In this document: one piece after another, positions 3,137-52,685 of the stretch | Numbering within the stretch: position 1 is the stretch's first letter | Layout of the letters: each line of letters starts with the position of its first letter | Assembly (NCBI GenBank): GCA_025453675.1 | Contig: JALOPW010000016.1 | Location: 1-55,165 of the forward strand | DNA length: 55,165 nt | Direction: 5' to 3' | Origin: Methanolinea sp. | Lineage (GTDB): Archaea; Halobacteriota; Methanomicrobia; Methanomicrobiales; Methanospirillaceae | Translations under genes and position numbers: made by a program | The notes under the pieces: generated by a model | The model's database searches: none | Seen by the model: the letters and a program-made list of their open reading frames with translations, nothing else | Told to the model about the DNA's origin: nothing

Positions 3137-3233
3137 TCCCCTTCGAGACACCTGCACACACATTCATGAAACGCACATGAGACCGTCGGGTCACATGCCC
3201 CCATGATGAAAACCGCGGATGCGGTTTTCATGC
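3137..3233 (-). repeat. Dispersed mosaic repeat, copy A
   Basis: On the plus strand a CTTCGAGACAC...ACATTCATGAA end module is joined to the reverse complement of the core module. The core reads (minus strand) hairpin arms ATGAAAACCGC and GCGGTTTTCAT, then a G-run, CATGTGACCCGACGG and TCTCATGTGCGTTTCAT. The same modules recur at 8449, 13752, 19291, 49091 and 52255. Copy A lacks the middle ATGGCGAAGCCAT hairpin found in others. Confidence 0.85.
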
Positions 3234-3277
3234 CAAAATAGCGAATCCATTTTCATATTCAAAAGGGGGGAGATGGA

Positions 3278-3916
3278 TCAGTTCACCAGAACATGGAGGT
3301 CATAGGTCTCGATCGCATCCATGAAGGTGATGTTCACCGCAATCCCCCACATCTGGATTGTGGCAATGTCACCTGCCTCTTCTTCCTCAAAGGCCACTCT
3401 CATCCCATCAACCCTGTACTGTGCATCCAGGTTCAACGGCAGGTAGTCTCTCCCGTCATCGCCCACTATGCCATAGAACCCTCCCTCCAAGTCAAGGTAG
3501 GTGACGGTACCGGCAGGGACCCATGGACGCCGGTACTCCCCGTGGAGCATCTGGCCGCCCTTCTCTTTCGCGCTCAATACCCATGAATGGGTGCCGCCCG
3601 CTCCCACCAGTTGCGTTGCCGGCGGAGTAAATGCATCCTTCACCAGCGCAAGGCCGGCCGAATGGGAGAGGTTCCAGGAGTAGCCCGTGGTGGGGTTCTC
3701 GGGGAGCGTGAGTGAGAGTTCGGAGCCCAGGGGAACGGTCACATTCTTCCCGTTGCTGTTCTGGTCAAATGACAGGGAGGAAGCCGTAGTGGCGGTTGGG
3801 GAAAGGGTGGGTGTCGGCCCCCCCGGACCCTCCGGTGGCTGGGTGCATCCGGCAAGGAAGACGGCCAGGAGGCAGGCCAGTGCCACACCAAAGAAAAGAA
3901 TTTGATGTTGTGACAT
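3278..3916 (-). CDS. Secreted lipoprotein with chagasin-like (I42) cysteine protease inhibitor fold
   Basis: A signal peptide ending in the lipobox LAGC is followed by a Thr/Ser/Pro linker, so the protein should be lipid-anchored outside the cell. The mature part carries the chagasin loops ENPTTGYSW, then GAGGTHSW and EYRRPW, which in the family insert into cysteine protease active sites. Between the RRPW loop and the last strand (ETYDLHVLV) lies an extra block of about 70 residues with GDDGRDYLPLNL, VDGMRVAFE and IQMWGIAV, giving 212 residues against about 110 for simple chagasins. The ATG at 3916 is preferred over the TTG at 3925 because GAGGTGAT lies about 8 bp upstream of it. Confidence 0.8.
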   Translation of the reverse strand: MSQHQILFFGVALACLLAVFLAGCTQPPEGPGGPTPTLSPTATTASSLSFDQNSNGKNVTVPLGSELSLTLPENPTTGYSWNLSHSAGLALVKDAFTPPATQLVGAGGTHSWVLSAKEKGGQMLHGEYRRPWVPAGTVTYLDLEGGFYGIVGDDGRDYLPLNLDAQYRVDGMRVAFEEEEAGDIATIQMWGIAVNITFMDAIETYDLHVLVN

Positions 3917-3925
3917 GAGATGCAA

Positions 3926-4431
3926 TCACCTCTGTGATGACACCATAATTGACGCATCCCCATAAACTCTTTCTGATGACTGCGAATTGGGTCACAGTCA
4001 TGGGGTTCCTGGGTAAGAATCCTACTTCTGCACCCTTCTCCGCGATGCGATAATGTTCCGGCAGGGTGGTACCCCGGGGATGTATGAGAGGTATTGCGGC
4101 ATTTTAATACAGAATTTGAGAGATGTTGACGGCAATCTCTGACGGGAGGGGGGAGAATTCTCCCCTCCCAGCACCTCCCCCTACCAACGCGATGGTGTGT
4201 GGGCAGTGTTGACTGGGGCGCTCTCTATATCAAGGCCAGTTCCCCCGCACACGGGTCTATTGCATTGGGGGGACGCCTACAGCGGCAGGGGAATTATTGG
4301 TGGGCCGAATCCAGTTGCCATGCGGTGACACTACAGTGTCCGCACACTATGTGCCGTGCGAATACACGCTGTTTTCCGGCTTCAGCCATGCAAAAAAGCG
4401 CGAAAAGACCCGGCGAAAATAAAAAAGTGAT
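3926..4431. other. Intergenic region with a short perfect palindrome
   Basis: No convincing gene occurs in these roughly 500 bases. GACACT-AC-AGTGTC forms a perfect 14-bp inverted repeat at 4327-4340, about 90 bp past the frhB stop, and could be a 3' UTR hairpin of the frh transcript. Several G- or C-rich runs occur between 4140 and 4280. Confidence 0.5.
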
Positions 4432-5310
4432 TTATTTTGGCCCCAGGTAGGGGTTCCGGAGGCTCTTGTTCACACCGAACTTGGCCCTCTCCTCTACGGT
4501 CTTCTGGTTCTTGGTGATCTTCTCGGTAGCGAGCTTGGTCACAAGCTCGAGCCCCGGTTTCACCTGCTCGATGGGCTTTGTCTCGAAGCATCCGGCAGCG
4601 ATGGCCTTGGACCAGATGTCGTCACCGTTGCGGGTCCGGACAAAGACCGTGCTCCAGCCGTCAGGGCTCCCCACGGATCCGGTGGAGACGTCTGCAAGGT
4701 TGGCCACGTAGTCAAGACAGACATGGCATCCGGGCTGCTCGTATTTGTGAGTCACCTTGAGCGGGAGCTGGACGACCTGTCCGCGCTGCCCGTAGACCCA
4801 GAACTTGCCCTTGCCGATCTCCATCTTCTTGACGGCCTCCATCTTCATGGCGGCATGGTCCTCCACCAGCTGCTTCACGCTCTGGTACGAGAAGTTCTCC
4901 ATGCAGAAGATGCCGATGGCGAGTTTGATCTTGTCAGGCACATCACGAAGTCCCACCGGGTAGAGCTGGCCCTTCCTTACCGCCTGCATCTGGCAGGGGG
5001 TTCCCACGATACCGATCTTGTCAAGACCGTAACTGCGGGTGGCCTCCTTGATCCATGAGACCTGCGGGCTGATGTTGTACTTGGTGCCGCTTGCGGACAT
5101 CAGCTCCTCGACAGTGGTTGCGATGAACGGGCGGGGCCTCCAGGGCTCGTCTCCCGGGCCTGCCACGATGGCGCCTTCTATGATGCCTTCTTCAAGGGCG
5201 AACTTGAAGAGCTGGGTGACGATACCGCCGTCCTGGGCTCTCTTCAGAATGGCCTTGTCAGCACTGCGTGCCGATACACAGAGTTTGTATTTTCCGAGTT
5301 CTCCTGCCAT
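4432..5310 (-). CDS. frhB: Coenzyme F420-reducing hydrogenase, beta subunit
   Basis: FrhB holds FAD, binds F420 and passes electrons from the FeS chain as hydride to F420. The sequence shows the family signatures QDGGIVTQLFKFALEEGIIEGAI, GTKYNISP, GIVGTPCQMQAVRKGQ and HVCLDYVANLADVSTGSVG, with conserved Cys residues near the bound [4Fe-4S] cluster. The ATG at 5310 is chosen because GAGGTGA lies 5-6 bp upstream; a longer frame to 5346 would overlap frhG and lacks this signal. It is the last gene of the frhADGB operon, 10 bp after the frhG stop. Confidence 0.97.
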   Translation of the reverse strand: MAGELGKYKLCVSARSADKAILKRAQDGGIVTQLFKFALEEGIIEGAIVAGPGDEPWRPRPFIATTVEELMSASGTKYNISPQVSWIKEATRSYGLDKIGIVGTPCQMQAVRKGQLYPVGLRDVPDKIKLAIGIFCMENFSYQSVKQLVEDHAAMKMEAVKKMEIGKGKFWVYGQRGQVVQLPLKVTHKYEQPGCHVCLDYVANLADVSTGSVGSPDGWSTVFVRTRNGDDIWSKAIAAGCFETKPIEQVKPGLELVTKLATEKITKNQKTVEERAKFGVNKSLRNPYLGPK

Positions 5311-5320
5311 CTCTCTCACC

Positions 5321-6202
5321 TCATTTGAGTGCCGCATCAATGGCATCCATAATGCCCTCGAATTCGGGGATCACATCGAAGTTGAAGAAGCTCCTCGGGC
5401 ACTGCGCATAACAAGCGCCGCACTTGATGCACATCTCCCGGTTGACGTTGGGCTTCCCGTACTCGTGGGTGATGGCCCGGACCGGGCAGGCGGCGGCACA
5501 GGATCCGCATCCCATGCACAGGCCCTGGTTGACCACATCATACATCAGGTCGCAGCCGCAGGCTTCTGTGCCGCGGTCGGCGAGCAGCATCAGCGGTGTT
5601 AAATATTTCTTTGCCAGCTCCTGCTGGTCCTTGTTGCCCTTGAGCAGCAGGTAAGCCATCACGCACACGTTCCTGATCAGCTGCGGGCAGGGAGCACATC
5701 CGGGGATATAGACATCCACCTTGATGAGGTCCCCTACCGGCAGATAGGACTCGTGCTGCGGCTGGTTTTGCTGGCCGCCGCGGGTGAACCGGGTGATGTT
5801 GCCATAACAGGCACAGCCACCAACAGCCACCACCACTGCCGCCTTCTCGCGGGTCTCTTTAATCTCCTGTACTGAGATCTTGTCCTGGATACAGACCGAA
5901 CCCTCAACCAGCGCGACATCCATCTTGGGGATGTGCCGCACGTCAGCGAGGGTCAGGCCATAGACAAGGTCGGCGTATTTGTCAAGTATGGTTAACAATC
6001 CACCATAGTTGTCTGCTAAGGATACCAGGCAGCCCGTGCATCCACTCATGTGCACGTGGCCAACTGTAATCTTGTCTGCCACAGGCTTTTCCTCCTTTTT
6101 AATCGTTTCAGCCATTTTCTCCACGTCAGCTCCCGCCGCAGGCTTCGCCTTCGGCTCCGGGCTGGCGCTCTTCTTTCCGAAGATTTTCGAGAGTAGTCCC
6201 AT
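5321..6202 (-). CDS. frhG: Coenzyme F420-reducing hydrogenase, gamma (small) subunit
   Basis: The small subunit carries three [4Fe-4S] clusters between the NiFe site in FrhA and FAD in FrhB. The proximal-cluster cysteines begin with SGCTGC (C55, C58 in this numbering), followed by GGCACYG and PGCAPCPQ; two ferredoxin-type motifs are at the C-terminus (CMGCGSCAAACP and CIKCGACYAQCP). The ATG at 6202 has GGAGTG upstream but lies inside frhD, giving a 77-bp overlap and a Lys/Ala/Pro-rich N-terminal extension of 29 residues. An alternative ATG at 6115, preceded by GTGGAG, would start after the frhD stop and fits the usual FrhG N-terminus. Confidence 0.96.
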   Translation of the reverse strand: MGLLSKIFGKKSASPEPKAKPAAGADVEKMAETIKKEEKPVADKITVGHVHMSGCTGCLVSLADNYGGLLTILDKYADLVYGLTLADVRHIPKMDVALVEGSVCIQDKISVQEIKETREKAAVVVAVGGCACYGNITRFTRGGQQNQPQHESYLPVGDLIKVDVYIPGCAPCPQLIRNVCVMAYLLLKGNKDQQELAKKYLTPLMLLADRGTEACGCDLMYDVVNQGLCMGCGSCAAACPVRAITHEYGKPNVNREMCIKCGACYAQCPRSFFNFDVIPEFEGIMDAIDAALK

Positions 6203-6662
6203 AATCCACTCCGATCAGGGCCAGTACTTCACGTACAGCCCTGGGTATCGCTTTCGAAACCTCATCCGAGAGCCCCAGTTCGAATTCAGGGGCGCTCACC
6301 CGCTTTGGCTGGCATCCAATGACCACGATCTCCATCGTGTCTTTCAACCGGTGGAGCGGCTCGGTGAGGTCCCAGGAGTGGGCATCCCGGTAACTTCCCG
6401 GCGGCAGGTCTTCGACCGTTAATCGCACCAGTTCGCCTGGTTCTCCCCCGAAGTTCACGGTGTCTACGACGACGAGTTTCCGTGTCACTTCAGGATCCAG
6501 CAGTGTAAAAATAAAATGCGGGCCACCGAGGCCGGCATCCACGGCTTTGATATTGTCGGGGAGATCAAGGCGCAGGAGCTCCTCAACCACAGCGGGTCCA
6601 AACCCGTCATCCGCGAACAACGGGTTGCCACACCCTGCGATCACAATCTCTGGATACAGCAT
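6126..6662 (-). CDS. frhD: F420 hydrogenase maturation protease
   Basis: FrhD is the endopeptidase that removes the C-terminal tail of the large subunit after NiFe insertion. The start IVIAGCGNPLFADDGFGPAVVEEL is the hydrogenase-protease signature with metal-binding Asp/Glu; a second conserved acidic/aromatic region is VDAGLGGPHF, with VVVDTVNF after it. The normal core seems to end near residue 155. About 20 further residues (NLRKEERQPGAEGEACGG) exist only because the frame runs on into frhG. It lies between frhA and frhG as in other frhADGB operons. Confidence 0.95.
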   Translation of the reverse strand: MLYPEIVIAGCGNPLFADDGFGPAVVEELLRLDLPDNIKAVDAGLGGPHFIFTLLDPEVTRKLVVVDTVNFGGEPGELVRLTVEDLPPGSYRDAHSWDLTEPLHRLKDTMEIVVIGCQPKRVSAPEFELGLSDEVSKAIPRAVREVLALIGVDYGTTLENLRKEERQPGAEGEACGGS

Positions 6663-6672
6663 GCGAGTAGTC

Positions 6673-8040
6673 TCACTGGATGAGTTTCTGGGCGACTAGC
6701 CTCTTGTCCTCGTCGATAACGATCATGTGGGTGGCACATGACACGCACGGGTCGTATCCTCGGACAATGACCTCTGCCAGCTGCCAGGGAGCACCGGTCA
6801 GGGCGCGGCTGCAGGTGGGGAAGTTCCAGGTGGTGGGGACCAGCATCTCGTAGTAGAGGACCCTGCCATCCTTGACCTTGGCCAGGTGGACGTCACACCC
6901 GCGGGGTGCCTCGTTGGCGGCCCAGCCCAGTGATCCGTCACCCTGGGGGATGTGGTCGGCAAGGATCTTTCCGTTCGGGTTGTAATCGTCCAGTGCATTG
7001 AGGATGGTATACAGACAGTCGGGGTATTCCATCTGGCGTGCAATCTGCTGCCCGATAGTGCCCTTCTCGTCGTAATTCTTGAACTGGACAAGTCTGGCAC
7101 GGGGCCCTACCTCAACGGGGGAGCCGTCGTATAGTGGGACGCCGGTGCAGGCTTCCATCTGGGGGTTGACCTTGGTCCCAACGGGGGAAGTCCCGCCGAT
7201 GGGGTAGCCCGGGTCTGCCAGGCTGACTTCTCCCTCACCCATATACCAGTCCCAGGGGCGGACATCAGTCCAGCGGTCAGGGTTCCATCCCGGGCAGTCG
7301 TCCAGGTTGGAGCTGCCATACATGGGATGTGCTGCCATATACCCCTGGTTGTGGTATCCGAGTGTTTTCGGGATGGGGATCTGTTTTCCGCCGACTTCTG
7401 CCCAGTCACGCTTCTGGTAATTGCGAAGGATGGCAATCATGAAATCCATCTGCTCATGAGCCAGGACCAGTCCCTCCTTCGCGAGGTCGTACATCTTGGT
7501 CTTTGCATGCGCTGTGCAGGCCTTGTACATGCCGCCTACACGGGGGTTGCTGGGGTGAACTGCCTCTCCACCTGCGATCTCACCGATAGTCTGGCCGATC
7601 TCCCTGATCCTCTGGATCCTCTTTGCAACCGAACGGACCGGTTCCTGTGGGGAGAAGGGGTTAATCTTAGTGTCGGTTCCGGGAAGATACATGTCCGGCA
7701 GGGTCAGGATGTTGTGGAGTGCATGGCTGTGAAGCCTGTTGGCACTCTGAAGAATAATCCTGAGCAGCTTCGCATCCTTAGGGATCTCGCAGCGGATGGA
7801 GCCTTCCATGGACTCGATGCCGGCAAGGGTGTGGGCGATCGGACAGATACCACACACGCGGGACGCAATCTTCGGGACCTGGTCCATCGTCTTCCCGAGG
7901 GCCAGCTTCTCTACCCCTCTGACAGGGGTGATAGAGAGCCAGTCACCACGCTCGATGATACCTGCATCGTCCACCTTCAGGACGAGCTTTGAGTGTCCCT
8001 CATGCCTCGTGGTTGGGGAAATCTCTACAATTTTCGACAA
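6673..8040 (-). CDS. frhA: Coenzyme F420-reducing hydrogenase, alpha (large, NiFe) subunit
   Basis: The 455-residue precursor holds the NiFe active site, where H2 is split. The four Ni ligands are visible: RVCGIC (C63, C66) and DPCVSCATH (C432, C435). Family knowledge places FrhD cleavage after H438, releasing 17 residues. No selenocysteine codon replaces a ligand. The start is TTG, supported by GAGGCGAT about 6-12 bp upstream and by the conserved MSKIVEISPTTRHEGHSK N-terminus. It is the first gene of the operon. The leader is about 100 nt if transcription begins 25 bp below the TATA box at 8162-8172. Confidence 0.97.
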   Translation of the reverse strand: MSKIVEISPTTRHEGHSKLVLKVDDAGIIERGDWLSITPVRGVEKLALGKTMDQVPKIASRVCGICPIAHTLAGIESMEGSIRCEIPKDAKLLRIILQSANRLHSHALHNILTLPDMYLPGTDTKINPFSPQEPVRSVAKRIQRIREIGQTIGEIAGGEAVHPSNPRVGGMYKACTAHAKTKMYDLAKEGLVLAHEQMDFMIAILRNYQKRDWAEVGGKQIPIPKTLGYHNQGYMAAHPMYGSSNLDDCPGWNPDRWTDVRPWDWYMGEGEVSLADPGYPIGGTSPVGTKVNPQMEACTGVPLYDGSPVEVGPRARLVQFKNYDEKGTIGQQIARQMEYPDCLYTILNALDDYNPNGKILADHIPQGDGSLGWAANEAPRGCDVHLAKVKDGRVLYYEMLVPTTWNFPTCSRALTGAPWQLAEVIVRGYDPCVSCATHMIVIDEDKRLVAQKLIQ

Positions 8041-8121
8041 TATTATCGCCTCATGGTATTCTCGTGTTCTCTTTGCGATACCGGTTTAATTCCACACGCA
8101 CCTCTCCTGGTGAGAGATGTT

Positions 8122-8196
8122 TGACCGTACAGTGTACGTTCAGGGAGAATGTAGCAATCTCCATATATTTATCTGCTGTGCAATAGTGCATTGCAC
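8122..8196 (-). promoter_or_regulatory. frh operon promoter with two inverted-repeat operators
   Basis: Read on the minus strand, a TATA box ATAAATATATGG (8161-8172) is flanked by two palindromes. Upstream, GTGCAAT-AGTGC-ATTGCAC (8178-8196) is a perfect 7-bp repeat; a second nested palindrome, AGTGCA-T-TGCACT, lies within 8185-8197. Around the expected transcription start, CGTACA-G-TGTACG (8126-8138) is perfect and extends to a near-perfect 21-bp palindrome (8122-8142). The placement at BRE/TATA and at +1 is what one expects for repressor sites. Confidence 0.75.
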
Positions 8197-8734
8197 TTGA
8201 TCGAAGCCTAAATCTCATTTTTTTCTAAAGAATAGAAGAAAATATTGAATATTTTAAGGTGAATGACCCCCACTGCATCAATGTGTGTCCGGAACTCACC
8301 CAAATCCCAAGCCATATTGCAATTTTTTTTACAAATTTCTCTCAAAATCTCCGCGCTTTGTGATGTTTCGAAGGCTGCCATCGGAGTGTTGATTCGATTT
8401 CACTCATATACACAGTGGAATTTGGAAAAAGACTAAAAAAACTACTTGATTCCCTCCGAGACACAAGCACACGCATTCATGAAAATGGCGCAGCCATTTC
8501 CATATAAACACACTATGAACTCCTTTCAGAATTTCGGACATAAATCATGATTCGGACATAAATCATGAAAATGGCGAAGCCATTTTGGTATGAAAACCGC
8601 ATCCGCGGTTTTCATCAGGGGGGCATGTGACCCAACAGTCTCATGTGCGTTTCATTAGAAAATGAGAGATATTATCTATATTCCAGGGCATACCTTGTGA
8701 GAAGGGTCTCTTCATCCCGTCAGGAAAACGGGGA
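8197..8734. other. AT-rich intergenic region containing repeat copy B
   Basis: About 540 bases without a credible gene. The part upstream of frhA (8200-8440) is AT-rich with A- and T-runs. The rest is the dispersed repeat at 8449-8656, followed by the 3' end of mptA. Confidence 0.7.
8449..8656 (+). repeat. Dispersed mosaic repeat, copy B (longest)
   Basis: Order of modules: end module (TCCGAGACAC, then GCATTCATGAAAATGGC), an ATGGCGCAGCCAT hairpin, the linker CACTATGAACTCCTTTCAG with TTTCGGACATAAATCATGA (its last part duplicated at about 8533-8567), a second ATGGCGAAGCCAT hairpin, then the core with ATGAAAACCGC/GCGGTTTTCAT, six Gs, CATGTGACCCAACAG and TCTCATGTGCGTTTCAT. Confidence 0.88.
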
Positions 8735-9670
8735 TCAGGAATGCTCCCCGTTCAGTTCCACGAAAAGTTCAGCCATGGTGGCCTGCCGCTCGGCGTAGGC
8801 ATCGTGCTGGTGAATGCTCTCCTCGTTGGTCTGGGTAATAGTGATCAGCGAATCTCCGGGGAGCTCCTTAAACTCTGCCAGCACCTTCTTTGCGATCTCC
8901 CTGACGCAGTCCTCCACGAAACGGGGGTTCTTATGGGCATTCAGCACCACGTAGCTCTCATCCCCCCTCTTGAGCAGTTCGAATATGGAGGCACTCATGG
9001 AATCTTTGAGTATCCGGATGATCTTCTCCAGTTTCACATGCTGGTCGTCATCGATCTCTATGCACAGGACACCCCTTCCCCGCTGGTTGTGCGTGGCCAT
9101 GGGTACTTCTGCCAGGAAACCTGCGATCTTTTCATCCGGGATCCCCAGGTGGTGCATCACCGAGATGGCCCGCTCCTTCATGATATCCTGGGCACAGGGG
9201 CAGGCGGTCATCCCGGTCACCTCGGCCCCGATGCTCTTCCTGACGATGGGGTCGCGGAAAGTCCTCCGGGCGACAGCCCGGGCATGCACCTTGACCACTT
9301 CGTGGCAGCTGGTGTGGGATACGGGGGTCTCCCGCTTGACCATGAACTGGCTGTTCATCAGCACCTCGGTGCGGTCTGCATACTCGTGCCGGTCCAGGAG
9401 CTTTCTGGCCACCACGCTGCAGAGATTCTCGATCTCCTTTACGTCGCCATCGATAGCCTGCTGGAGCACCTCATCGATCACCTCGAAGTTCCGGGAGAGG
9501 TTTGCTCCCTTGAGGCTCCCGGGAAGATCCACAAAGACGTCGAAATTGGAGATGAAGATAACCGGCCTCTTATCAGGCCTGGAGACCTCAACCAGTTTCT
9601 TGACGTTTTTGACACCTACCCTGGTGAGATTTATCCGCACATCAGGGATGGTGGACTGAATATCTGGCAA
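8735..9670 (-). CDS. mptA: GTP cyclohydrolase MptA (FolE2-type, methanopterin biosynthesis)
   Basis: MptA opens GTP to 7,8-dihydroneopterin 2',3'-cyclic phosphate, the first step to tetrahydromethanopterin; it is Fe(II)-dependent in characterised archaea. The sequence has the family start PDIQSTIPDVRINLTRVGVKN, conserved HTSCHEVVKVHARAVARRTF, GMTACPCAQ and HNQRGRG. The length of 311 residues is normal. The start codon is TTG at 9670, chosen by fit to the conserved N-terminus; it has only a very close GTGAT upstream, so initiation may be leaderless. It is divergent from ilvC. Confidence 0.95.
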   Translation of the reverse strand: MPDIQSTIPDVRINLTRVGVKNVKKLVEVSRPDKRPVIFISNFDVFVDLPGSLKGANLSRNFEVIDEVLQQAIDGDVKEIENLCSVVARKLLDRHEYADRTEVLMNSQFMVKRETPVSHTSCHEVVKVHARAVARRTFRDPIVRKSIGAEVTGMTACPCAQDIMKERAISVMHHLGIPDEKIAGFLAEVPMATHNQRGRGVLCIEIDDDQHVKLEKIIRILKDSMSASIFELLKRGDESYVVLNAHKNPRFVEDCVREIAKKVLAEFKELPGDSLITITQTNEESIHQHDAYAERQATMAELFVELNGEHS

Positions 9671-13751: not shown

Positions 13752-13923
13752 TACACGCATAGAAAATGAACTGCATATGAGACCCATGGTCACATACCCC
13801 TCATATGAAAACCGCGGATGCAATTTTCATACCAAAACACTATGAACTCCTTTCAGGATTTCGGACATAAATTATGAAAATGGCGAAGCCATTTTCATTC
13901 GGAAATGCCTGAGGCATTTTCCA
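13752..13923. repeat. Dispersed mosaic repeat, copy C
   Basis: The core module is present in reverse (CATATGAGACCCATGGTCACATAC..., then ATATGAAAACCGC with a diverged second arm), followed by CACTATGAACTCCTTTCAGG, TTTCGGACATAAATTATG and a perfect hairpin ATGAAAATGGC-GAA-GCCATTTTCAT. A further hairpin, GGAAATGCC...GGCATTTTCC, ends the unit. It lies between convergent aIF2-beta and rpoL. Confidence 0.82.
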
Positions 13924-19240: not shown

Positions 19241-19290
19241 CTTTCGAACCATCATTGTTCCCTCTCCCCTTTTTTTTCCAGCCATTTCCC

Positions 19291-19488
19291 GTATGAAAAC
19301 CACATCCGCGGTTTTCATCAGGGGGGGCATGTGACCCGACAGCCTCATGTGCGTTTCGTATGAAAATCACCTTTGCGATTTTCATGAATTATGCCTTTTT
19401 CCCGGAAAAGGGGCACATATAAGGTTACTATGAAAATGGCTTCGCCATTTTTATGAATGTGTATGAATGTGTCTCGAAGGGAATCATA
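19291..19488 (+). repeat. Dispersed mosaic repeat, copy D
   Basis: Core first (ATGAAAACCAC/GCGGTTTTCAT, seven Gs, CATGTGACCCGACAG, CTCATGTGCGTTTCGTATG), then a variant ATGAAAATCACC...GCGATTTTCAT hairpin, a spacer, an ATGGCTTCGCCAT hairpin at about 19429-19454, and finally the end module in reverse (GAATGTGTCTCGAAGGGA). The end module is thus inverted relative to copy B. Confidence 0.86.
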
Positions 19489-20564
19489 TGGTTTTTTTGA
19501 AAAGGTATGTATGGGGTCCGGTACAAGATCCGGGTATGAGATGCCCGGTGTGCGGGGGTGCGTGCATCAGAGACGCGCCTGTGGTTCTCGAATCCCTCCC
19601 GTCTGTCTTCTCCCGGTGTCCCAGGTGCAGGTTCAGAGTGCTTGACAAGGGCGCTCCCCTGCAGGGCAGGTATTATGCAACTCCCTGTGCCTGCAACAAA
19701 CGGTTCATTGACGAAGTGTTTGCCCACCTCTACGTGATCATGGTGGAAGAAGACGTCCTGACCGGGAAAGAACCACTCAGGTCTGTGGGGTCGCCGCTCA
19801 TACATCCCGGCTTTTTCATGACGGGCCCCCCGTTTCTCCCCCCGGATTCCCTGGTGCTCCTCTCCCCGCGGGTGACGAAGTCAGTGGCTCAGCGAATAGT
19901 TGACGAGGTCCCTGAGGTGAGAGGGGTGGTGAGGTCGGGGGATTTTGTCCCCGGGGTCACAGACGCCACCCTCACCGCCGCCCCACGTACCTACGAACGC
20001 CTCGCGGGGTGCGATGTACGTGCCGGCGTCTTTCCTACGGAAGCCGGGCCGCTGGTCATCTATACCCAGCAGTCCAGGATGCATATCGAGTTTCCCAGGC
20101 TGAAAAATCCCAAGATCCAGTCCGTGGAGCGCCACCTGGCAGAAAAATCCCCTGCTTGGTGCGTTGATGCCTGTGCCGGGGCAGGGACGCTCGGGCTCTG
20201 CGCTGCCAGGCATGGTGTCCGGGGGGTGGTTCTCAACGATGCCTGGTTTGCGGCAGCGTTCTGGTCGGCGATGAACCTCCATGTCAACCGCATGTTTTTC
20301 CGGATCGGGGAGGTCAGGATGCTCTCGACCTACCACGCCATGGAGGAGCATCCCATAGGAGGTGAACCGGTCAGAGTCGCAGAGGCGTCAGGTGAGCAGT
20401 CGATCACGGTGTACCAGGGTAATTTGCGGGAACTCTGGAAGGTGCTGCCACCCGTGCCGGTATGTGCAATTCTTGATCTCTTTGATAAATCGGATAAAAC
20501 CTCGATGTCGCAGGTTTTGGAGGAATGGCGAAGCCTTGTCCCCGGCGAGGTATTTATCCCCTAG
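19488..20564 (+). CDS. Zinc-ribbon / SAM-dependent methyltransferase-like protein
   Basis: The N-terminus has a CxxC...CxxC zinc ribbon (RCPVCGG and SRCPRCRFR), with a further Cys pair in TPCACNKRF. The C-terminal half carries a SAM-binding motif I, VDACAGAGTLGLCAARHG, and ends with AILDLFDKSD, where a motif IV would lie. A known family name cannot be given; archaeal RNA or protein methyltransferase is a guess. The true start is unclear. ATGs at 19488 and 19536 are candidates; everything upstream of 19488 is repeat copy D, whose reverse end module provides the only SD-like AGGGA. The 3' end overlaps the SRP RNA promoter. Confidence 0.72.
   Translation: MVFLKRYVWGPVQDPGMRCPVCGGACIRDAPVVLESLPSVFSRCPRCRFRVLDKGAPLQGRYYATPCACNKRFIDEVFAHLYVIMVEEDVLTGKEPLRSVGSPLIHPGFFMTGPPFLPPDSLVLLSPRVTKSVAQRIVDEVPEVRGVVRSGDFVPGVTDATLTAAPRTYERLAGCDVRAGVFPTEAGPLVIYTQQSRMHIEFPRLKNPKIQSVERHLAEKSPAWCVDACAGAGTLGLCAARHGVRGVVLNDAWFAAAFWSAMNLHVNRMFFRIGEVRMLSTYHAMEEHPIGGEPVRVAEASGEQSITVYQGNLRELWKVLPPVPVCAILDLFDKSDKTSMSQVLEEWRSLVPGEVFIP
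20550..20557 (+). promoter_or_regulatory. TATA box of the SRP RNA gene
   Basis: GTATTTAT lies about 25 bp before the predicted 5' end of the SRP RNA (about 20578) and inside the last codons of the preceding gene. Confidence 0.6.
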
Positions 20565-20577: not shown

Positions 20578-20892
20578 TATGGGGACTAGCCCGGGTGGCC
20601 CGGCGTCACCTGTGACCCGAAACCGTCGGCATGCGGGGGGCGAAGTTCGGAGAAGGCGGTACCGGGTTGCCTTTGAATGGTACAGGCCAACGTTGAAACC
20701 TCGTCCCATGAGGTCGGTGGACAGGGATCAAAACCCCGGAGGGGGTGGCGACCTGTTGTTGCGGAGACCGGTCCAGGCCCGGAAGGGAGCAGACTTACCG
20801 TGAACATTCGGCGCCCATGGGGTTGCGGGGCGGAGGAGGAATGTGCCCGGAGGAGGCAGCCGCGAGCCGTCGACCGAGAACATGTCCCCATT
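20578..20892 (+). ncRNA. Signal recognition particle 7S RNA
   Basis: At about 315 nt this has archaeal SRP RNA length. The ends pair (ATGGGGAC at 20579-20586 with GTCCCCAT at 20884-20891), closing helix 1/5. The S domain shows the conserved helix-8 internal loop GGAAGGGAGCAG at 20781-20792, next to CAGGCCC, as needed for SRP54 binding. The 5' part carries an Alu-type domain with CACCTGTGACCCG. No protein-coding potential is evident. The RNA end is about 17 bp before the dehydrogenase start codon. Confidence 0.93.
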
Positions 20893-45691: not shown

Positions 45692-47218
45692 ATGAAGCTC
45701 ACCGCCAAGCTGGTTGATATCGGCACACGGGAAGTCCTCCTGCATATCGAGGATTCGAGGAATATCGGAGTGCTCCCGGGAGATCGTATACAGATCCTCA
45801 ACGAGACTACAGGGATCTCTGTTGCAGCGTTCATCGATACCACGACCACGCTCCTGCCAAAAGGGACCATAGGCATATACCAGGTCACCAATCAACGCCT
45901 GCAGATTGCAGATGGATCAGTAGTTGAGGTGCGTAAGGCCGAGAGGCCTGTCACCCTCGATTACATCAAGAAGAAGATGGACGGGCTGCATCTCTCGAAA
46001 GATGAGACCTATGCCGTGATCAGGGATGTGGTCTCCGATAACCTCTCACCTGCGGAACTGACTGCCTACATCACCTCCTGCTACATCAACGAGATGGACA
46101 TGGACGAGGTGGAGCACCTCACCAGGGCCATGGTGGACACGGGAGAGCGGCTGACGTTTCATGCCCATCCCATCGTGGACAAGCATTCCATCGGGGGGGT
46201 GCCGGGGAACAAGATCTCCCTCCTCGTAGTTCCCATCATCGCCGCAAGCGGCCTCAAGATTCCAAAGACCAGTTCACGGGCTATCACCGGGGCGGGGGGC
46301 ACGGCCGATCTCATGGAGGTGCTGGCCCCCGTGGATTTTTCGGCTGCGGAGGTGCAGCGGATGACCGAGAGGGTGGGAGCGGTCATTGTGTGGGGAGGGG
46401 CCACCAACATCGCGCCCGCGGACGACAAGATCATCATCCAGGAGTATCCCTTCCGCATCGATGCCAGGGGGCAGATGCTCGCGAGTGTGATGGCCAAAAA
46501 GTATGCGGTCGGTGCCGACCTCGTGGTGATCGATATCCCGGTGGGGACGCATACCAAGGTAGTCACCGCCCAGGAAGGGAGGAAACTTGCCCGCGAATTC
46601 ATTGAACTCGGGGATCGACTGAATATGCAGGTGGAGTGCGCCATCACCTACGGGGACTCGCCCGTGGGGAGGAGCATCGGTCCAAATCTTGAGGTAATGG
46701 AGGCTCTTCGTATCCTTGAAGGCGGGGATACTCCGGGATCGCTCCTGCAGAAGAGTGTCGCCATCGCAGGGATGGCACTTGAGATGTCCGGGAAGGCGGC
46801 AAGGGGGATGGGTGCACAGATGGCAGAAGACATCCTCAGGAGAGGGGATGCTCTGAAAAAATTCCTCCAGATCATCGAGATCCAGGGAGGAGACCCCAAA
46901 ATAAGGTCAGATGATATCGAGCCCGGGAAGTACCAGTTCGTAGTCAATTCACCTGCCACAGGGTATGTCATCGAGCTGAATAACCGGGCCCTGATAAGCC
47001 TGGCCAGGACTGCCGGGGCACCCCATGACCGGGGGGCCGGAATCCTGCTCCATGCAAAGAAGGGGAGCCGGGTAGAGAAAGGGCAGCCGATCTTCAGCAT
47101 ATTTGCCGACCGGAACTGGAGACTCCAGAAGGCCCTCGAGGAGGGCAGGCAGCTGATGCCGGTGCTTGTGGAGGGGATGCTCCTCGACCGGGTGCCGCAT
47201 GACACCCGATGGGGATGA
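45692..47218 (+). CDS. deoA: AMP phosphorylase (DeoA family)
   Basis: The archaeal enzyme phosphorolyses AMP (also CMP, UMP) to ribose-1,5-bisphosphate and base. It has the extra N-terminal domain of about 80 residues ([20 protein letters not shown]...[10 protein letters not shown]), then the phosphorylase core: [64 protein letters not shown] and a barrel-sandwich C-terminus ([18 protein letters not shown]). ATG 45692 (GGAG upstream) fits the family start better than the frame start at 45653. R15P isomerase and form III RuBisCO, its known partners, are not in the window. Confidence 0.96.
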
Positions 47219-47425
47219 TCTGATCATTATTCCAGCCTGAATTTTCACTTTTTTTGGTGTCCAGGCACCCGATACTGGTCCCGGGGGATGCTGTGAGGTC
47301 ACGCCCTGCGCCACGCATACCCGGTTACGCCTGGGATCAACGGGACACACTTCTTATCCCATTTTGATGGTGATGTTCAGCGTGCTACCAATCAACTGAT
47401 ATAGAGAGAGCGCCGATATCAGTTT

Positions 47426-48817
47426 ATGCAAAGGATTGAGACCTGTTTTGTTTTTGCACTCCTCTCCATGCTGCTCTTCACCGGGCCGGCCCTGGGGGTC
47501 ACGGTGCTGGTGAACGTCTACGAGAAGGAGGGGAACATCACGCCTCTCTCCGGGGCATCCCTGTATGCGAACGGTGCGCTGGTAGGGAAATCGGATAGCG
47601 GGGGCAATATCGAGTTCTCCCACCCCGGGACTGATTTCATCAGTATCAGCGTCGAGAAACTCGGGTATTCGCCATGGAGCGGGGACATCGGGGTCAATAC
47701 CACCACGCTACTGGTGGAGATGAGCAAAAAGAAAGTGCCCCTCCTTGTACAGGTCTATGATACCGACACCCTGGCGAATGTACCCGGGGCCAGTGTGTGC
47801 ATCAGGGACGGGGGGAGCAGGAATACCAGCCAAACAGACGCAAACGGGACGAGCTCCTTCATTGTCACGGGAGATTCGGTGTATATACTGGAGATTTCGG
47901 CTACCAATTACAGGACTTTCAGTGACCAGGTAGAGGTCGGGCTTGACCAGAAGACCGTCCAGGCCATGCTCTTTCGTGACGACCGCTTCTCTGTCCAGGT
48001 GAAGGATGAGGAGACCGGCAATCCCCTTGCCGGTGCATCTGTGTCCGTGGATGGCACGGACAGGGGGGTTACCGATCAAAAAGGGGTCGTGACGCTTGCC
48101 CTCCCCCGTGAGAAGGTCTACATGGTCCAGGTCCGGATGGAGGGATACGAGGACTATCACGAACGGCAGATCGTGGAGAAAGACCAGGCCCTGATCACCA
48201 TCAGCATCAGGAAATCCCCGTACAGCGTGTTTGTCTCGGTCTACAACGAGGAGAGGAACCCGGTGGAGGGTGCGGTGGTCCTGGTTGACGGCCTGCCCCA
48301 GGGGAGCACCAACCGGTACGGGAGGCTGCAACTGGCCAATCTCACGCTCGGAAAATACCAGCTCGAGGTCAGGCACCCGGGTTTTATGACCCGTCAGCAG
48401 CAGTTGCAGGTCACGATCCAGGGAGATGACGTCCCTGTTGACCTGGAATACCTCGGTGTGAACGTCTCCATCACTACCCTGGAGGACGGCTCGATCCCCG
48501 TGCCCGGGGTCACGGTATTCATAAACGGGAAAGAGGAAGGAACTACACGCGATGACGGTACCCTCTTTTCCCGCATGAGGCTGGATACACCCTACGTAAT
48601 CTCTGCAGAGAAAGAAGGGTATAATCCCGCAAAGGTGGAGAAGGTGTTCTCATCACAGAATGAGACCGCACCTCTGATCATACCCATGGAGAGGAGCATT
48701 AACTGGCTGATGGTAGGGGTGGTGCTGGCAGTGGTAGTGGCAGCCTGCCTGGCGGCAGTCATCCTGCTGAAGAGGAGAGGGCCAGGAAAAATGCACGGAC
48801 ACCGCGGAGGACTATAA
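47426..48817 (+). CDS. Surface protein with five PEGA/carboxypeptidase-regulatory-like repeats
   Basis: A signal peptide (FVFALLSMLLFTGPALG) is followed by about five beta-sandwich repeats of 75-80 residues, each with a P-x-x-G-A-x-V-x-V-D/N-G core (LSGASLYANGALVGKSD, LAGASVSVDGTDRGVTD, VEGAVVLVDGLPQGSTN, VPGVTVFINGKEEGTTR) and a GY.....V...N end. A single transmembrane helix (VGVVLAVVVAACLAAVIL) and basic tail end it, so it is exposed outside the cell. Such repeats probably bind surface glycans or proteins. The spacer to the deoA gene is about 207 bp. Confidence 0.88.
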   Translation: MQRIETCFVFALLSMLLFTGPALGVTVLVNVYEKEGNITPLSGASLYANGALVGKSDSGGNIEFSHPGTDFISISVEKLGYSPWSGDIGVNTTTLLVEMSKKKVPLLVQVYDTDTLANVPGASVCIRDGGSRNTSQTDANGTSSFIVTGDSVYILEISATNYRTFSDQVEVGLDQKTVQAMLFRDDRFSVQVKDEETGNPLAGASVSVDGTDRGVTDQKGVVTLALPREKVYMVQVRMEGYEDYHERQIVEKDQALITISIRKSPYSVFVSVYNEERNPVEGAVVLVDGLPQGSTNRYGRLQLANLTLGKYQLEVRHPGFMTRQQQLQVTIQGDDVPVDLEYLGVNVSITTLEDGSIPVPGVTVFINGKEEGTTRDDGTLFSRMRLDTPYVISAEKEGYNPAKVEKVFSSQNETAPLIIPMERSINWLMVGVVLAVVVAACLAAVILLKRRGPGKMHGHRGGL

Positions 48818-49090
48818 ACCCGGATCAGAAGTGCCGGATGGCATCTTCACCCCCCGGAATCCCTTCCGGGAGACCGCGACATGCATTCAGCGGGTTGATC
48901 ACGTCCCCCATCTCCCTGCTCTATGAAAAGACCGGGTTTTATCACAGTATAAACCGGGTGAATCCCGAAACTGTCACACAGTGTGGTGGCCTGCACCTTC
49001 TTCACGTGAGCTTCATTTTTCGTTTGGATTGCAACACGACTTTCACCAGATAGCAGAGTCTGGCTGATGCTCTTCGTTCCACTCAGTGAA
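48818..49090. other. Intergenic region before repeat copy E
   Basis: No gene is recognised. ACTGTCACACAGTGTGG contains a short CACAC...GTGTG-type inverted repeat near 48970-48986. A-rich and pyrimidine stretches precede repeat copy E. Confidence 0.5.
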
Positions 49091-49232
49091 AGAATGAAAA
49101 TGCCGTATCCGCGGTTATCATCAGGGGGGGCATGTGACCCGACGGTCTCATGTGCGTTTCATTCGAACACACTCTGAACTCCTTTCTGGATTTCAGGCAT
49201 ATCTTATGAAAATGGCGAAGCCATTTTCATTC
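49091..49232 (+). repeat. Dispersed mosaic repeat, copy E
   Basis: Core with a diverged hairpin (AATGAAAATGCCG...GCGGTTATCAT), seven Gs, CATGTGACCCGACGG and TCTCATGTGCGTTTCATT, then CACTCTGAACTCCTTTCTGG and a perfect hairpin ATGAAAATGGC-GAA-GCCATTTTCAT ending 10 bp from tRNA-Arg. Confidence 0.87.
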
Positions 49233-49241
49233 AAAAAGAAG

Positions 49242-49313
49242 CGGACCCAGCGGGAATCGAACCCGCGTCCTTGGGTCCGAAGCCCAAGAGGATATCCTCT
49301 ACCCCATGGATCC
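49242..49313 (-). tRNA. tRNA-Arg (TCG)
   Basis: A 72-nt cloverleaf with acceptor GGATCCA/TGGGTCC (one G-U), discriminator G, anticodon TCG in CTTCGGA, and T-loop GTTCGATTC. TTAATAGG (49336-49343, minus strand) is about 27 bp upstream and may serve as its TATA box. Confidence 0.96.
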
Positions 49314-49370
49314 GTCACAGGCGTTGGCAGGACAACCTATTAAGCATTTTCTGTTGTATTGATCTGTACG

Positions 49371-49808
49371 ATGATCCTGTCGTCATCCGAGATCACCAGG
49401 CGCCTCTCCGGGAGCAGCATGGAGGGCGACCTGGTCATAGAACCCTATAGCGACGAATGCCAGCAGCCAGCGTCCTACGATCTCAGGGTGGGTGGCGATT
49501 TTGTCCTGCCCCCCCGGGTGTGTACCCTGGTAAATACCCTGGAAAGGGTTGAACTACCCCCCGACCTCGCGGCGACGCTGAGGTGCCGGTCATCATTCGG
49601 GAGGAAGGGTGTTTTGGTCACCGCGGGCTTTGTAGATCCGGGTTTTCGTGGGCAACTGACCCTCTGCCTGGTGAACATGGGCGCAGAGCACCTTACCATC
49701 CGGAAATTTGAACGGGTGGTCCAGATGATACTCCATCAGGTCACCGATGGACAGGGCAGGTATAGCGGCCGTTACCAGGACAGTACCGGGGTTATCCAGG
49801 CGAGATAG
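49371..49808 (+). CDS. dcd: dCTP deaminase
   Basis: Dcd makes dUTP from dCTP (some archaeal forms also make dUMP). The short 145-residue form keeps the trimeric dUTPase-like core: ASYDLRVGGDFVLPP, LRCRSSFGRKGVLVTAGFVDPGFRGQLTLCLVN with the Ser/Arg and Glu-region residues, and a Gln-containing C-terminus. ATG 49371 is about 30 bp below CTATTAAG and has no SD, so a leaderless mRNA is likely. It is 1 bp from the NrpR-like gene. Confidence 0.9.
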   Translation: MILSSSEITRRLSGSSMEGDLVIEPYSDECQQPASYDLRVGGDFVLPPRVCTLVNTLERVELPPDLAATLRCRSSFGRKGVLVTAGFVDPGFRGQLTLCLVNMGAEHLTIRKFERVVQMILHQVTDGQGRYSGRYQDSTGVIQAR

Positions 49809-49809
49809 A

Positions 49810-50757
49810 ATGATTCGGACAGAAAGGAAGTATATCGAGATCCTGCGCATCCTCAAAGAGCACAGGGAGCCGATGGGTGCGAAGCGCCTCTCTGAGCTGA
49901 TGGCTGAGCGCGGCTTTGTGCTGAGTGACCGGGCGGTGCAATATTACCTCCGGTACCTCGACGAGATGGGATTTACCGAGAAAGTCGGGAACATGGGCCG
50001 CATTCTCACTCCCTACGGCAAGGAAGAGACCGAGAGTGCACTGGTGGGGGACAGGATCGGATTCATCATCTCAAAACTGGAGCGCCTGGCGTTCAGGAGC
50101 ACGTTCGATCCCGAGACGAGCACGGGAGATGTCGCCTACAACCTCTCTCTCGTTCCTGAAGAGAGGCTACCGGAGGCCATGGTCGCCTTTGATGAAGTTA
50201 TCGCTGCGCGTTGCGGTTTTTTCTCCAGTTACCGGGTTATCGACAAGGACCCCCGGGTCCCCGCCGGGAGCGCGGGGATCATGAGCATCTGCAGCATCAC
50301 CATGGACGGGGTATTCCAGCGGCGCGGCATACCTGTGAAGATGGCATACGGGGGACGCCTTGCCATTCAGCATGATGAGGCCACCCGTTTTCTGGACCTC
50401 ATAGGATACCGGGGCACGACGATTGACCCCCTCCAGCTCTTCATCTCTGCGGGACTGACTTCGCTCTCGTCGCTGGTCTCCACCGGGACCGGGACGGGTC
50501 TTGCGAATGTCAGGGAGATCCCGTCCCTCGGGGAAGGAAAAGCCCGCGAGATTGTGGCCCAGATGAAAAGAGCGGGTTTTGTCTTCCCGGTGGCCATGGG
50601 AACCTCGGTCTTCAACCTGGTATCAGACCCCTACCGCCTCTCCATCGTGGCGTTCTCAGGGATGAATTTCGTGGCAAATACTGTCGAGAAAGGCATCCCA
50701 ATCAGGACGGAGATCGGGGCAGGGAACGTCCCATTCTCAAAGATTCTCCAGGACTGA
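49810..50757 (+). CDS. NrpR-like nitrogen regulator (wHTH plus one DUF128 domain)
   Basis: An N-terminal RNase-R-type winged helix (EILRILKEHREPMGAKRLSELM...SDRAVQYYLRYLDEMGF) is followed by one NRD/DUF128 domain of about 230 residues (DVAYNLSLVPEERL, SICSITMDGVFQRRGIPVKMAYGGRL, GTGTGLANVREIPSLG, ESSF-type end). NrpR represses nitrogen assimilation genes and senses 2-oxoglutarate. One NRD copy, not two, makes this a short form. It starts directly after dcd; targets cannot be named. Confidence 0.9.
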   Translation: MIRTERKYIEILRILKEHREPMGAKRLSELMAERGFVLSDRAVQYYLRYLDEMGFTEKVGNMGRILTPYGKEETESALVGDRIGFIISKLERLAFRSTFDPETSTGDVAYNLSLVPEERLPEAMVAFDEVIAARCGFFSSYRVIDKDPRVPAGSAGIMSICSITMDGVFQRRGIPVKMAYGGRLAIQHDEATRFLDLIGYRGTTIDPLQLFISAGLTSLSSLVSTGTGTGLANVREIPSLGEGKAREIVAQMKRAGFVFPVAMGTSVFNLVSDPYRLSIVAFSGMNFVANTVEKGIPIRTEIGAGNVPFSKILQD

Positions 50758-50931
50758 CCGGGAGGATACCTCCTGCTGTTCTCCAGGGAAACCCCGATCT
50801 CCCCATTTCTCCTTCTTCTTCAGGAGATTCACGCAAAAAACCCATGCCCTTCCCCTCTGACCGAAAGGTGTCCGGATCTTGACATCAGAGGGGGGTGGAG
50901 GGATCTCCATCAACGGATCCGGTGTTCTCTT

Positions 50932-52110
50932 TCAGGCTGGAGGGCCAAAAGAATCCGTCCCTCTCGCGCTGTCCCGTATCTTCCGTATCTCTTCCACCCT
51001 GGGCAGGGTGTCCATGCCTGCCAGCATGATGAAGATACCCAGGAAACTGGTTCCGCTCACCGGGTAATCACCTGACCTCAGTTCCAGTCCCCCGATGGTC
51101 CGGTCAATCCACCTCCTCACTGTCATGAATCCCTTCATGCTCATGTCGTGCGAGGGGCCGGCGATAAGGATGAGTGCTTTTTTGGCTTTTTCCAGTTCGG
51201 TGGGTGTTGAAATTTCATCAAAAATCGCTTTTTTTGTCAGTTCCACTACCCGGGAGGCCTTCAGGTGCCCGTCCTGCACGCCCGGTGCCCCGGGACGGAT
51301 TCGGGAGAGGAGGTCAAGGGGGCGCTCTCCGGCCACCTGGTCACGTGCATATCCCACGGTCACGAACCCCATCCCCTGGATGGTGTTCAGGATCTCCCCT
51401 GCGTCCAGCACTACCTGGGGGAGCTCCCCTGTCTCACGGTCAGAAAATTCACCTGCCCTCAGCAGGAGGGTGAAACGACTGCTGATAAGGTTATTCATGT
51501 CAGAGTAGAACCTCTCTCTTCCTGATACCGGCTGCTGGGGGGTAGACTTGCGCCCAATCAGGCTCTTCAGGTCACCCGACCGGCCGTATCCCTCATCTTC
51601 GGACAGGGAGGGCACCCTGTCCTTCCATGACTCGTTATCAAAGAGGACGATTCCATCCAGCAGGTTCAGAAGCTCGTCAAGCTGGTCCGCGGCAAGGGAG
51701 GAGCGTGCATCCCCTTCCTGGCGGCATGGCAGGGTGCAGAGACCGAATACCGGTTCAACCATGCTTTTTTTCAGGTAAGACACCAGTTCAGGGGCATTCC
51801 CGGCCACGCTGCCCCCAAGACCTGCACACACGAACAGGGCATCTATATCCCCGTCGTCCAGGGCCTGGAGCCGGGAGAGCACCCCCTCTGACGGCAGGTG
51901 TCCTGCCAGGTCTTCGGACTGAGTGGGGTCCAGTGACTGGAAGAAAAGCCTCTGGGCAGCAGGGACCTGGTGGAGGGAGTTCAACTGACCGGCATCGTTG
52001 TCGACAGCGATTCCGAAGACGCAATGCACCGGGGCTTTCCGGTCATGGACAAGCAGCCGGTCCACTATACGGCAACCGGCTCCACCCAGGCCAATCGTGA
52101 GTATGCGCAT
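50932..52110 (-). CDS. FtsZ/tubulin-like GTPase with divergent signature loop
   Basis: The 392-residue protein starts like FtsZ (RILTIGLGGAGCRIVDRLL, the T1 loop) and has the region of the tubulin signature, where FVCAGLGGSVAGNAPELVSYL replaces GGGTGSG; T-loops and NDA...DNDAGQL remain. The C-terminal half (ELEKAKKALILIAGPSHDMSMKGFMTVRRWID) also follows the FtsZ GTPase/C-domain pattern. It is not canonical FtsZ or CetZ, and it may polymerise or serve as a cytoskeletal switch. No partner gene is adjacent. The function is unknown. Confidence 0.83.
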   Translation of the reverse strand: MRILTIGLGGAGCRIVDRLLVHDRKAPVHCVFGIAVDNDAGQLNSLHQVPAAQRLFFQSLDPTQSEDLAGHLPSEGVLSRLQALDDGDIDALFVCAGLGGSVAGNAPELVSYLKKSMVEPVFGLCTLPCRQEGDARSSLAADQLDELLNLLDGIVLFDNESWKDRVPSLSEDEGYGRSGDLKSLIGRKSTPQQPVSGRERFYSDMNNLISSRFTLLLRAGEFSDRETGELPQVVLDAGEILNTIQGMGFVTVGYARDQVAGERPLDLLSRIRPGAPGVQDGHLKASRVVELTKKAIFDEISTPTELEKAKKALILIAGPSHDMSMKGFMTVRRWIDRTIGGLELRSGDYPVSGTSFLGIFIMLAGMDTLPRVEEIRKIRDSARGTDSFGPPA

Positions 52111-52685
52111 AATCGTATCTGGTTCCTGTATTCTCTGCAGATATTCTGGGGATTTCCGCAGTTACATCCCGGGAATACGTCTGCCTCTATCCCAACCGCG
52201 GGATACCTCACTTCAGAACCCCTCAAGGGGATTTCACGTGAGCAGCGGGTTTTGGTATGAAAACCGCATCCGCGGTTTTCATCAGGGGGGGCATGTGACC
52301 TGACGGTCTCATGTGCGTTGTATGGGGGACATCCGTCCTGCAACCTCGTTATGTGAAATGTTTCCCTGGAACGATAAAGCACTTCTGCTGTTTTTCCCAT
52401 ACGGAAGGTCAGGGCCCCTGGGAAGGGATCAGAGCGCGGGGATCCACCGGGTGGAAACCTTCCCCCCTGATGCAGGCCGTGGTCAGCCAGGTATCGCAGG
52501 GTATTTCGTTTCCCGACACCTGAAATCTCTTTGCGCCTTGGATAAAATGAAGGCAGCCATTCCAGATCCGGGCCCTTTAAAAGGTTATTTCACGGGGATT
52601 CCGGGATTATCCCCTCGTTCTCTGAATAAAAAATGATAATGTATTTAAATCTACGTTCGATACTATTCCATGAGGTGAAAGTACC
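52111..52685. other. Intergenic region with repeat copy F and mer promoter
   Basis: About 575 bases without a credible gene. Copy F lies at 52255-52320. CCCCT-CA-AGGGG (about 52219-52230) is a small hairpin. TGTATTTAAATC (about 52639-52650) is the likely TATA box for mer and GAGGTGA (about 52672-52678) its ribosome-binding site. Confidence 0.65.
52255..52320 (+). repeat. Dispersed mosaic repeat, copy F (core only)
   Basis: A perfect 11-bp hairpin, ATGAAAACCGC-ATCC-GCGGTTTTCAT (52257-52282), then CAGGGGGGGCATGTGACC and TGACGGTCTCATGTGCGTT. End module, middle hairpin and linker are absent. This is the minimal unit. Confidence 0.88.

What the first reader, a model, noticed from the sequence alone, without database searches (positions are those of the whole stretch)
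3137..52320. Mosaic family of dispersed palindromic repeats in at least six intergenic sites
Copies at 3137-3233, 8449-8656, 13752-13923, 19291-19488, 49091-49232 and 52255-52320 share modules. Core: hairpin ATGAAAACCGC/GCGGTTTTCAT, a G-run, CATGTGACCCGACGG, TCTCATGTGCG. Middle hairpin: ATGGCGAAGCCAT. Linker: CTATGAACTCCTTTCAG. End module: CGAGACAC...ACATTCATGA. The end module lies left of the core in copy B and, reversed, right of it in copy D, as expected for outward terminal repeats of a non-autonomous mobile element (MITE-like). Modules are missing or duplicated in single copies. All copies are in spacers, two close to tRNAs. A structured regulatory RNA or REP-like role is also possible.
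Basis: seen in the sequence. Interest (0 to 1): 0.75.

Follow-up and report, generated by a model that had tools for sequence, protein, structure and literature searches.

The report
Mobile DNA hairpins landing in T-runs
An archaeon, probably a methane producer, carries about a hundred short mosaic elements built from hairpin modules of some 65-75 letters that seem to have jumped into runs of T between genes and into each other, while searches of its genus found neither the usual enzyme for moving such hairpins nor a reverse transcriptase.

Summary
The six copies are real. The genome (1.84 Mb) holds 61 core, 49 linker and 12 end-module sites by pattern, none for reversed patterns. Stretches fetched around them hold 194 modules in 94 elements, all intergenic by my own gene calls. 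Elements are strings of modules: a 25-26 nt palindrome with outer arms ATGAAAA/TTTTCAT, a subfamily-specific second half, and T's. They insert next to T-runs: 10 of 17 core modules in host flank follow at least TTT, against 2.2% in element-free spacers; 10 of 10 single end modules in later loci have T4 within 13 nt before. By rule, 24 of 61 core modules sit after the TTTT arm of another hairpin (one doubtful), which explains the mosaic. Relatives lack the own-type elements at the sites compared. One T-run is bare in two relatives but carries different elements in own and a third. End modules are never paired and inverted ends are lacking, so 'MITE' does not fit. It works most like PATE or REP/BIME elements, but neither Y1 transposase nor reverse transcriptase was found in 13 genus genomes. 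The mobilising enzyme is unknown.

The parts
3122..3259 (-). Copy A: END module whose hairpin arm (TTTT^CAT) carries an inserted core (A) module; ends by eye
   Evidence: arm ATATGAAAATGGATTCGCTATTTT before A; TTTCATGAATGTGT after
8435..8663 (-). Copy B: A< B> E> composite; core A inserted antisense in the arm of the B hairpin; END module at the A-run (T-run on the minus strand)
8587..8652 (+). Core (A) module inside copy B: GGT + hairpin + second stem-loop + TTT
13770..13907 (-). Copy C: B> A6> (linker module B followed by a variant core)
19288..19498 (+). Copy D: A> L2> E>, closing in a 7-nt T-run
49094..49237 (-). Copy E: B> A<, next to tRNA-Arg
52250..52319 (+). Copy F: single core (A) module directly after host TTTT
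8..117 (+). Possible seventh site at the contig end: hairpin ATGAAAATCGC...GCGATTTTCAT after a T-run, and a second degenerate hairpin ending in a T-run
   Evidence: module type not assigned

Best explanation
A genus-level family of non-autonomous mobile hairpin modules, most expanded in this species among the genomes searched. Each module (about 65-75 nt) is a directional unit: a palindrome with outer arms ATGAAAA/TTTTCAT at the left, a subfamily-specific second half, and T's at the right. Units insert directly after a T-run (by eye TTTT^CA) and add no duplication other than T's. Natural targets are T-tracts between genes, often downstream of stop codons. The TTTTCAT arm of any family hairpin matches the same target, so modules and whole composites insert into each other, which produces the mosaic. 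Series such as B>A> or A<B>E> then spread as units. Shown from sequence: architecture, T-run adjacency, nesting, absence of own-type elements at compared sites in relatives. Inferred: that an enzyme acting in trans cuts after TTT at both ends of a single-stranded hairpin substrate (IS200/IS605-like logic). The enzyme was not found.
For: Copy number with clean controls. Outer arms fixed while the stem changes: six different fully complementary 4-mers (TGGC, CCGC, TGCC, TCAC, TCGC, TGCA); 83% of inner cells pair in 41 distinct hairpins against 63% on average and 74% at most in 2000 shuffles of the arms. T-run before 10 of 17 host-flank core modules, null 2.2%; before 23 of 29 B-first elements with a boundary found and 17 of 18 A<-first elements; T4 within 13 nt before 10 of 10 single END modules in later loci. 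Nesting by rule: 24 of 61 core modules follow a hairpin arm, 23 of these after TTT or more, and 18 of 24 continue TTTCA. In L069, by eye, a whole B>A> composite sits between TTTT and CAT of an END hairpin. Site L082b: own B>A> and G004's A<E> (by eye) follow the same T6, where G002 and G009 have a bare T6-7 followed by CAC. G006 has a tandem array of 7.9 68-bp units with T6 on both sides. END last in 33 of 33 multi-module elements.
Against: No candidate enzyme: PF01797 (Y1) and PF00078 (RT) gave 0 of 13 genus genomes; no other transposase family was searched genome-wide. Matched stretches of relatives are about 67-91% identical, so spacers rarely align, and only site L082b shows a clear bare T-run. 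At site A one relative (G011) has a family member in the same orientation, so shared inheritance with module turnover is possible there. 7 of 17 host-flank core modules lack TTT; four of the 17 (L083, L105, two in L114) look by eye like missed nested or after-module cases, leaving 9 of 13. One of the 24 nested cases (L067) is doubtful by eye, and the rule tests the left side only. Of 7 elements annotated as a single END in the first set, only 1 has TTT exactly before the last 3 nt and 3 within 9 nt; by eye some of these follow remnants of other modules. The T-run before B may be part of the module. Recombination or microhomology at T-runs would leave similar traces.
Confidence: 0.72

Rival explanations
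1. Classical MITE family moved in trans by a DDE transposase.
For: Short, non-coding, many copies, intergenic; own-type elements absent at compared sites in relatives.
Against: By eye no terminal inverted repeats beyond a 6-nt ATGAAA/TTTCAT match: A runs GGTATGAAAACC..GTGCGTTT and E runs ATATGAAA..GTAGTTTTTT. No target duplication beyond T's. The genome does have another repeat with long inverted ends GGGTATAGTG, and it looks different. DDE families were not searched genome-wide.
Confidence: 0.08
2. REP/BIME system proper, mobilised by a RAYT (Y1) that is missed or recently lost.
For: High-copy extragenic palindromes, compensatory stem changes, mosaic composites and a tandem array, as described for BIMEs in PMC2817692 (passages).
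Against: No PF01797 hit in own or in 12 other genus genomes, while 5 and 6 of 14 control genomes ring. No GTAG/CGTC tag beside the palindrome (tags from PMC3733652, passages).
Confidence: 0.12
3. Retro-insertion: a U-ended RNA is reverse transcribed into A/T-runs, SINE-like.
For: Directional element with a T-run at the 3' side; T-runs on both sides on the same strand in many elements.
Against: RVT_1 found in 0 of 13 genus genomes. Antisense modules nested inside others do not fit one transcript.
Confidence: 0.05
4. Host function: structured RNA or terminator modules kept by selection downstream of genes.
For: Strong hairpins (z -2.4 to -5.2 as DNA, six typed modules). Nearest gene end is a 3' end in 59 of 85 clusters. 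In own, the gene on the left of END points into it more often than the gene on the right (31 of 41 against 19 of 40, p 0.012).
Against: Own-type elements not conserved at the same sites. No Rfam family at the elements. No overall orientation bias (36 sense, 32 antisense), and the END bias is not seen in relatives (11 of 15 against 10 of 16). Elements disrupt each other.
Confidence: 0.1
5. Enzyme-free spread: hairpin fragments captured at breaks or by template switching at homopolymers.
For: T-run junctions, tandem array, no enzyme found.
Against: Repeated module orders (B>A> 11 times, B>E> 9 times) with constant ends point to defined units.
Confidence: 0.12

Closest known systems
PATEs (palindrome-associated transposable elements) and SMRs of Haloquadratum walsbyi (PMC3119063, passages read)
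   Same: No terminal inverted repeats, palindromes near the ends, no clear target duplication, too short for a transposase, archaeal. SMR-A repeats there insert into PATE palindromes, as modules do here. Mobility there is also called hard to reconcile with the disrupted tnpA genes.
   Different: PATE palindromes resemble those of resident IS605-type transposons; here no Y1 gene was found in the genus. Modules are about 65-75 nt, target T-runs, and build ordered multi-module mosaics.
REP / BIME with RAYT (PMC2817692, passages; PMC3733652, passages)
   Same: Extragenic high-copy palindromes, compensatory changes, mosaic composites and clusters. CGTC REPs also seem to lack a dedicated transposase.
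   Different: No GTAG or CGTC tag; modules carry their own second half and T's; target TTTT^CA; no Y1 transposase found.
IS200/IS605 single-strand transposition (general knowledge; passages)
   Same: Would explain hairpins near the end, cleavage after a short motif at both ends, and no target duplication.
   Different: No enzyme detected; the target is a homopolymer.

Membership tests
MITE | terminal inverted repeats | tested here: not met
   by eye: ends of A, B and E units differ; only a 6-nt ATGAAA/TTTCAT match in some
MITE | target-site duplication | tested here: inconclusive
   only T's flank both sides
MITE | related autonomous transposon | tested here: inconclusive
   only PF01797 and PF00078 searched genome-wide; 20 proteins scanned, no transposase
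REP/BIME | extragenic high-copy palindromes in mosaics | tested here: met
REP/BIME | GTAG or CGTC tag at the palindrome | tested here: not met
   mostly GGT, GGC, CGA, CTA, AAT or ACT precede the palindrome
REP/BIME | RAYT (Y1) gene in the genome | tested here: not met
   0 of 13 genus genomes, own included; own assembly 94% complete
PATE | near-terminal palindromes, no inverted ends, too short to code | tested here: met
PATE | palindromes shared with resident IS605-type transposons | tested here: inconclusive
   no Y1 gene; TnpB not searched
Retroelement (SINE-like) | reverse transcriptase available | tested here: not met
   0 of 13
Known structured RNA | match to an Rfam family | tested here: not met
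   only tRNA and SRP RNA at gathering score in the window; in six element loci tRNA, plus one hit below its gathering score lying on a tRNA

The most novel reading that the evidence does not exclude
A self-nesting family of hairpin mini-elements that integrates into oligo-T tracts, including U-tract terminators, through an enzyme that is neither a Y1 transposase nor a reverse transcriptase: an unrecognised mobilising system in these archaea, in which the element's own hairpin arm is its preferred landing site.
Probability: 0.3. Interest if true: 0.75.

Novelty: new variant of a known kind. Interest (0 to 1): 0.55.

Why it matters
It gives a concrete, testable rule (insertion after T-runs, including the TTTTCAT arm of the family's own hairpins) for how mosaic palindromic repeats can arise. 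It also shows such a family spreading in a genus where the usual enzyme is not detectable. If an unknown enzyme is responsible, the compact, exact-ended modules give a direct assay for it.

Tried and rejected
Two END modules as outward inverted repeats: rejected, END is only at one side. Y1 transposase: 0 of 13. Reverse transcriptase: 0 of 13. Autonomous element: 20 proteins scanned with Pfam, several lying between two elements; no transposase. Strong strand bias towards nearby genes: a first count on strict END hits gave 20:5; with all elements it fell to 36:32, with 21:10 for elements that hold END; a later END count is modest in own and absent in relatives. Phages and plasmids (blastn of copy B): no match. 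Viral contigs: no exact match to two patterns. Rfam: nothing at the elements. Exact pattern scan of named genomes: one contig only, Methanoregulaceae UBA10516; in the 30 rows that I printed it matched own stretches only in the repeat itself. Repeated protein families in the fetched stretches: one pair, not followed. A first nested-insertion count was replaced because its rule also caught modules that follow B. Literature: the listings showed no title on this family, and one search found no paper for its terms; most subscription papers are not held.
Full report
Observation. All six copies are present where stated. Genome-wide pattern searches with up to 3 mismatches gave 61 core, 49 linker and 12 end-module sites, with 0 for the same patterns read backwards. 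I fetched 62 stretches around them. With typed module consensus strings I annotated 194 modules in 94 elements (reversed control strings gave 0 hits for nine of ten, 3 for one short L2 string). One search found eight own END sites outside these stretches, all fetched. All 94 elements are intergenic by a simple codon-based gene caller of my own, which allows 25 nt of overlap; the stretches were chosen around hits.

Anatomy. Read on the strand where the END module gives a T-run, modules share one plan: two or three bases, a 25-26 nt palindrome ATGAAAA-NNNN-loop-NNNN-TTTTCAT, a subfamily-specific second half, and T's. Commonest elements: A> 18, B>A> 11, B>E> 9, E> 7, A<E> 6, A<B>E> 5. Of 115 palindromes with exact outer arms, 88 have perfectly complementary inner 4-mers, 6 more pair with G-U and 21 have a mismatch; six different inner 4-mers occur in perfect form. 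Six typed modules folded as single-stranded DNA all form the first hairpin and a second, smaller stem-loop (only 3 bp in the G006 unit), with z-scores from -2.4 to -5.2. In relative G006 the same first hairpin with a different second half forms a 7.9-copy tandem array of 68 bp, with T6 on both sides.

Where they insert. Of 61 core modules delimited at both ends, 24 follow the arm of another module's hairpin by rule (one, L067, doubtful by eye), 17 follow module B, 2 follow L3, 1 follows A and 17 have host flank. In the host-flank class 10 of 17 follow at least TTT directly, against 2.2% for the same offset in element-free spacers (binomial p about 5e-13); 16 of 17 end in TT and 8 of 17 continue TTTCA. 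Four of the 17 (L083, L105, two in L114) look by eye like missed nested or after-module cases; without them it is 9 of 13. In the nested class 23 of 24 follow TTT or more, and 18 of 24 continue TTTCA. Some continue as the host hairpin would, as in copy A (..CTATTTT | A | TTTCATGAATGTGT..). In L069, by eye, a B>A> composite sits between TTTT and CAT of an END hairpin. Of B-first elements 23 of 29 (3 more had no boundary found), and of A<-first elements 17 of 18, have a T-run at the left; E-last elements have T5 or more within 9 nt in 32 of 40. Among the 20 later END loci (8 own, 12 of relatives), 4 had no hairpin by my rule, 6 followed another module, and all 10 others (4 own, 6 of relatives) had T4 within 13 nt before the hairpin. 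Within the first set, however, only 3 of 7 single-END elements had TTT within 9 nt.

Mobility. The first 20 kb of the window match in all 12 other genus genomes, largely in order though split over contigs in some. At sites A-D the own-type elements are missing from all relatives whose spacer I could extract (9, 10, 12 and 11 genomes; one site-D spacer came out as length 0). This is by eye, backed by an exact hairpin scan: 217 kb of orthologous relative sequence hold one such hairpin. Exceptions, by eye: G011 has a different family member at site A in the same orientation (the one hairpin), G009 has a diverged one at site C, and G005 may have a decayed END at site A; other repeats lie at site A in G008 and site C in G012. 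Joined flanks of ten other sites were searched in six relatives, and five of the ten were aligned. By eye L061 lacks the element in 4 of 4 relatives, L077 in 5 of 5 (G008 has another repeat there), L104 in 4 of 4 and L105 in 1 of 1. At L082b, G002 and G009 have a bare T6-7 after the stop codon; own and G004 have different elements (B>A> and A<E>) after the same T-run; G008 has what looks like a decayed END; G005 is unclear. END modules by pattern occur in 9 of 13 genus genomes (31 in own, 0-10 elsewhere) and in 1 of 88 other relatives.

Mechanism and enzyme. Exact ends after TTT on both sides, a hairpin next to the left end, lack of inverted repeats, and a tandem junction TTT|GGT in L063 are what IS200/IS605-type single-strand transposition would leave; this is inference from family knowledge. 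No PF01797 protein was found in own or 12 genus genomes (E up to 0.01) although control genomes ring, and no RVT_1 (E up to 0.001). Other transposase families were not searched genome-wide, and the own assembly is 94% complete. Of 20 proteins scanned near elements, none is a transposase. The enzyme is therefore unknown.

Relation to genes. 59 of 85 clusters lie nearest a 3' end. In own, the gene on the left of END points into it in 31 of 41 cases, against 19 of 40 for the gene on the right (p 0.012); relatives show no difference (11 of 15 against 10 of 16). Over all elements orientation is even (36:32). Archaeal termination uses U-tracts (PMC8716108, start of abstract in a listing), so T-run targeting would bring elements to gene ends without any regulatory role.

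Host. The taxon is not named by my calls.

Known kinds. PATEs and SMRs of Haloquadratum (PMC3119063, passages) and REP/BIME (PMC2817692 and PMC3733652, passages) are closest. The RepRanger paper (PMC12306157, passages) lists six archaea, none of them, by my knowledge of taxonomy, from Methanomicrobiales. I rate this a new variant of a known kind.

Noticed in passing
window 118-400; L092, L135, L136, L137: A second dispersed repeat of roughly 280 bp (GCTCTTCGCTATCTGGTGTGGGTAGG ... AACAGCGAGGAGGCA), 85-90% identical between own copies, with shorter matches in G002, G004 and G005.
   Followed up: partly
L102 2724-3020; L090 about 2508-2817: A MITE-like repeat with inverted ends GGGTATAGTG.../...CTACTATACCC, lying inside hairpin composites and splitting them. 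The repeat finder reported the inverted pair only in L102, not in L090 or L122; the L090 copy and one near site A in G008 are by eye.
   Followed up: partly
window 1-99: 100% identical to G000:C11:7471-7569: the contig ends in a repeat, so assembly breaks may hide further copies.
   Followed up: no
L134 883-1419 (G006 C31): Tandem array of 7.9 copies of a 68-bp module with the same first hairpin stem but a different second half, T6 on both sides.
   Followed up: partly
window 20579-20891: Archaeal SRP RNA gene.
   Followed up: no
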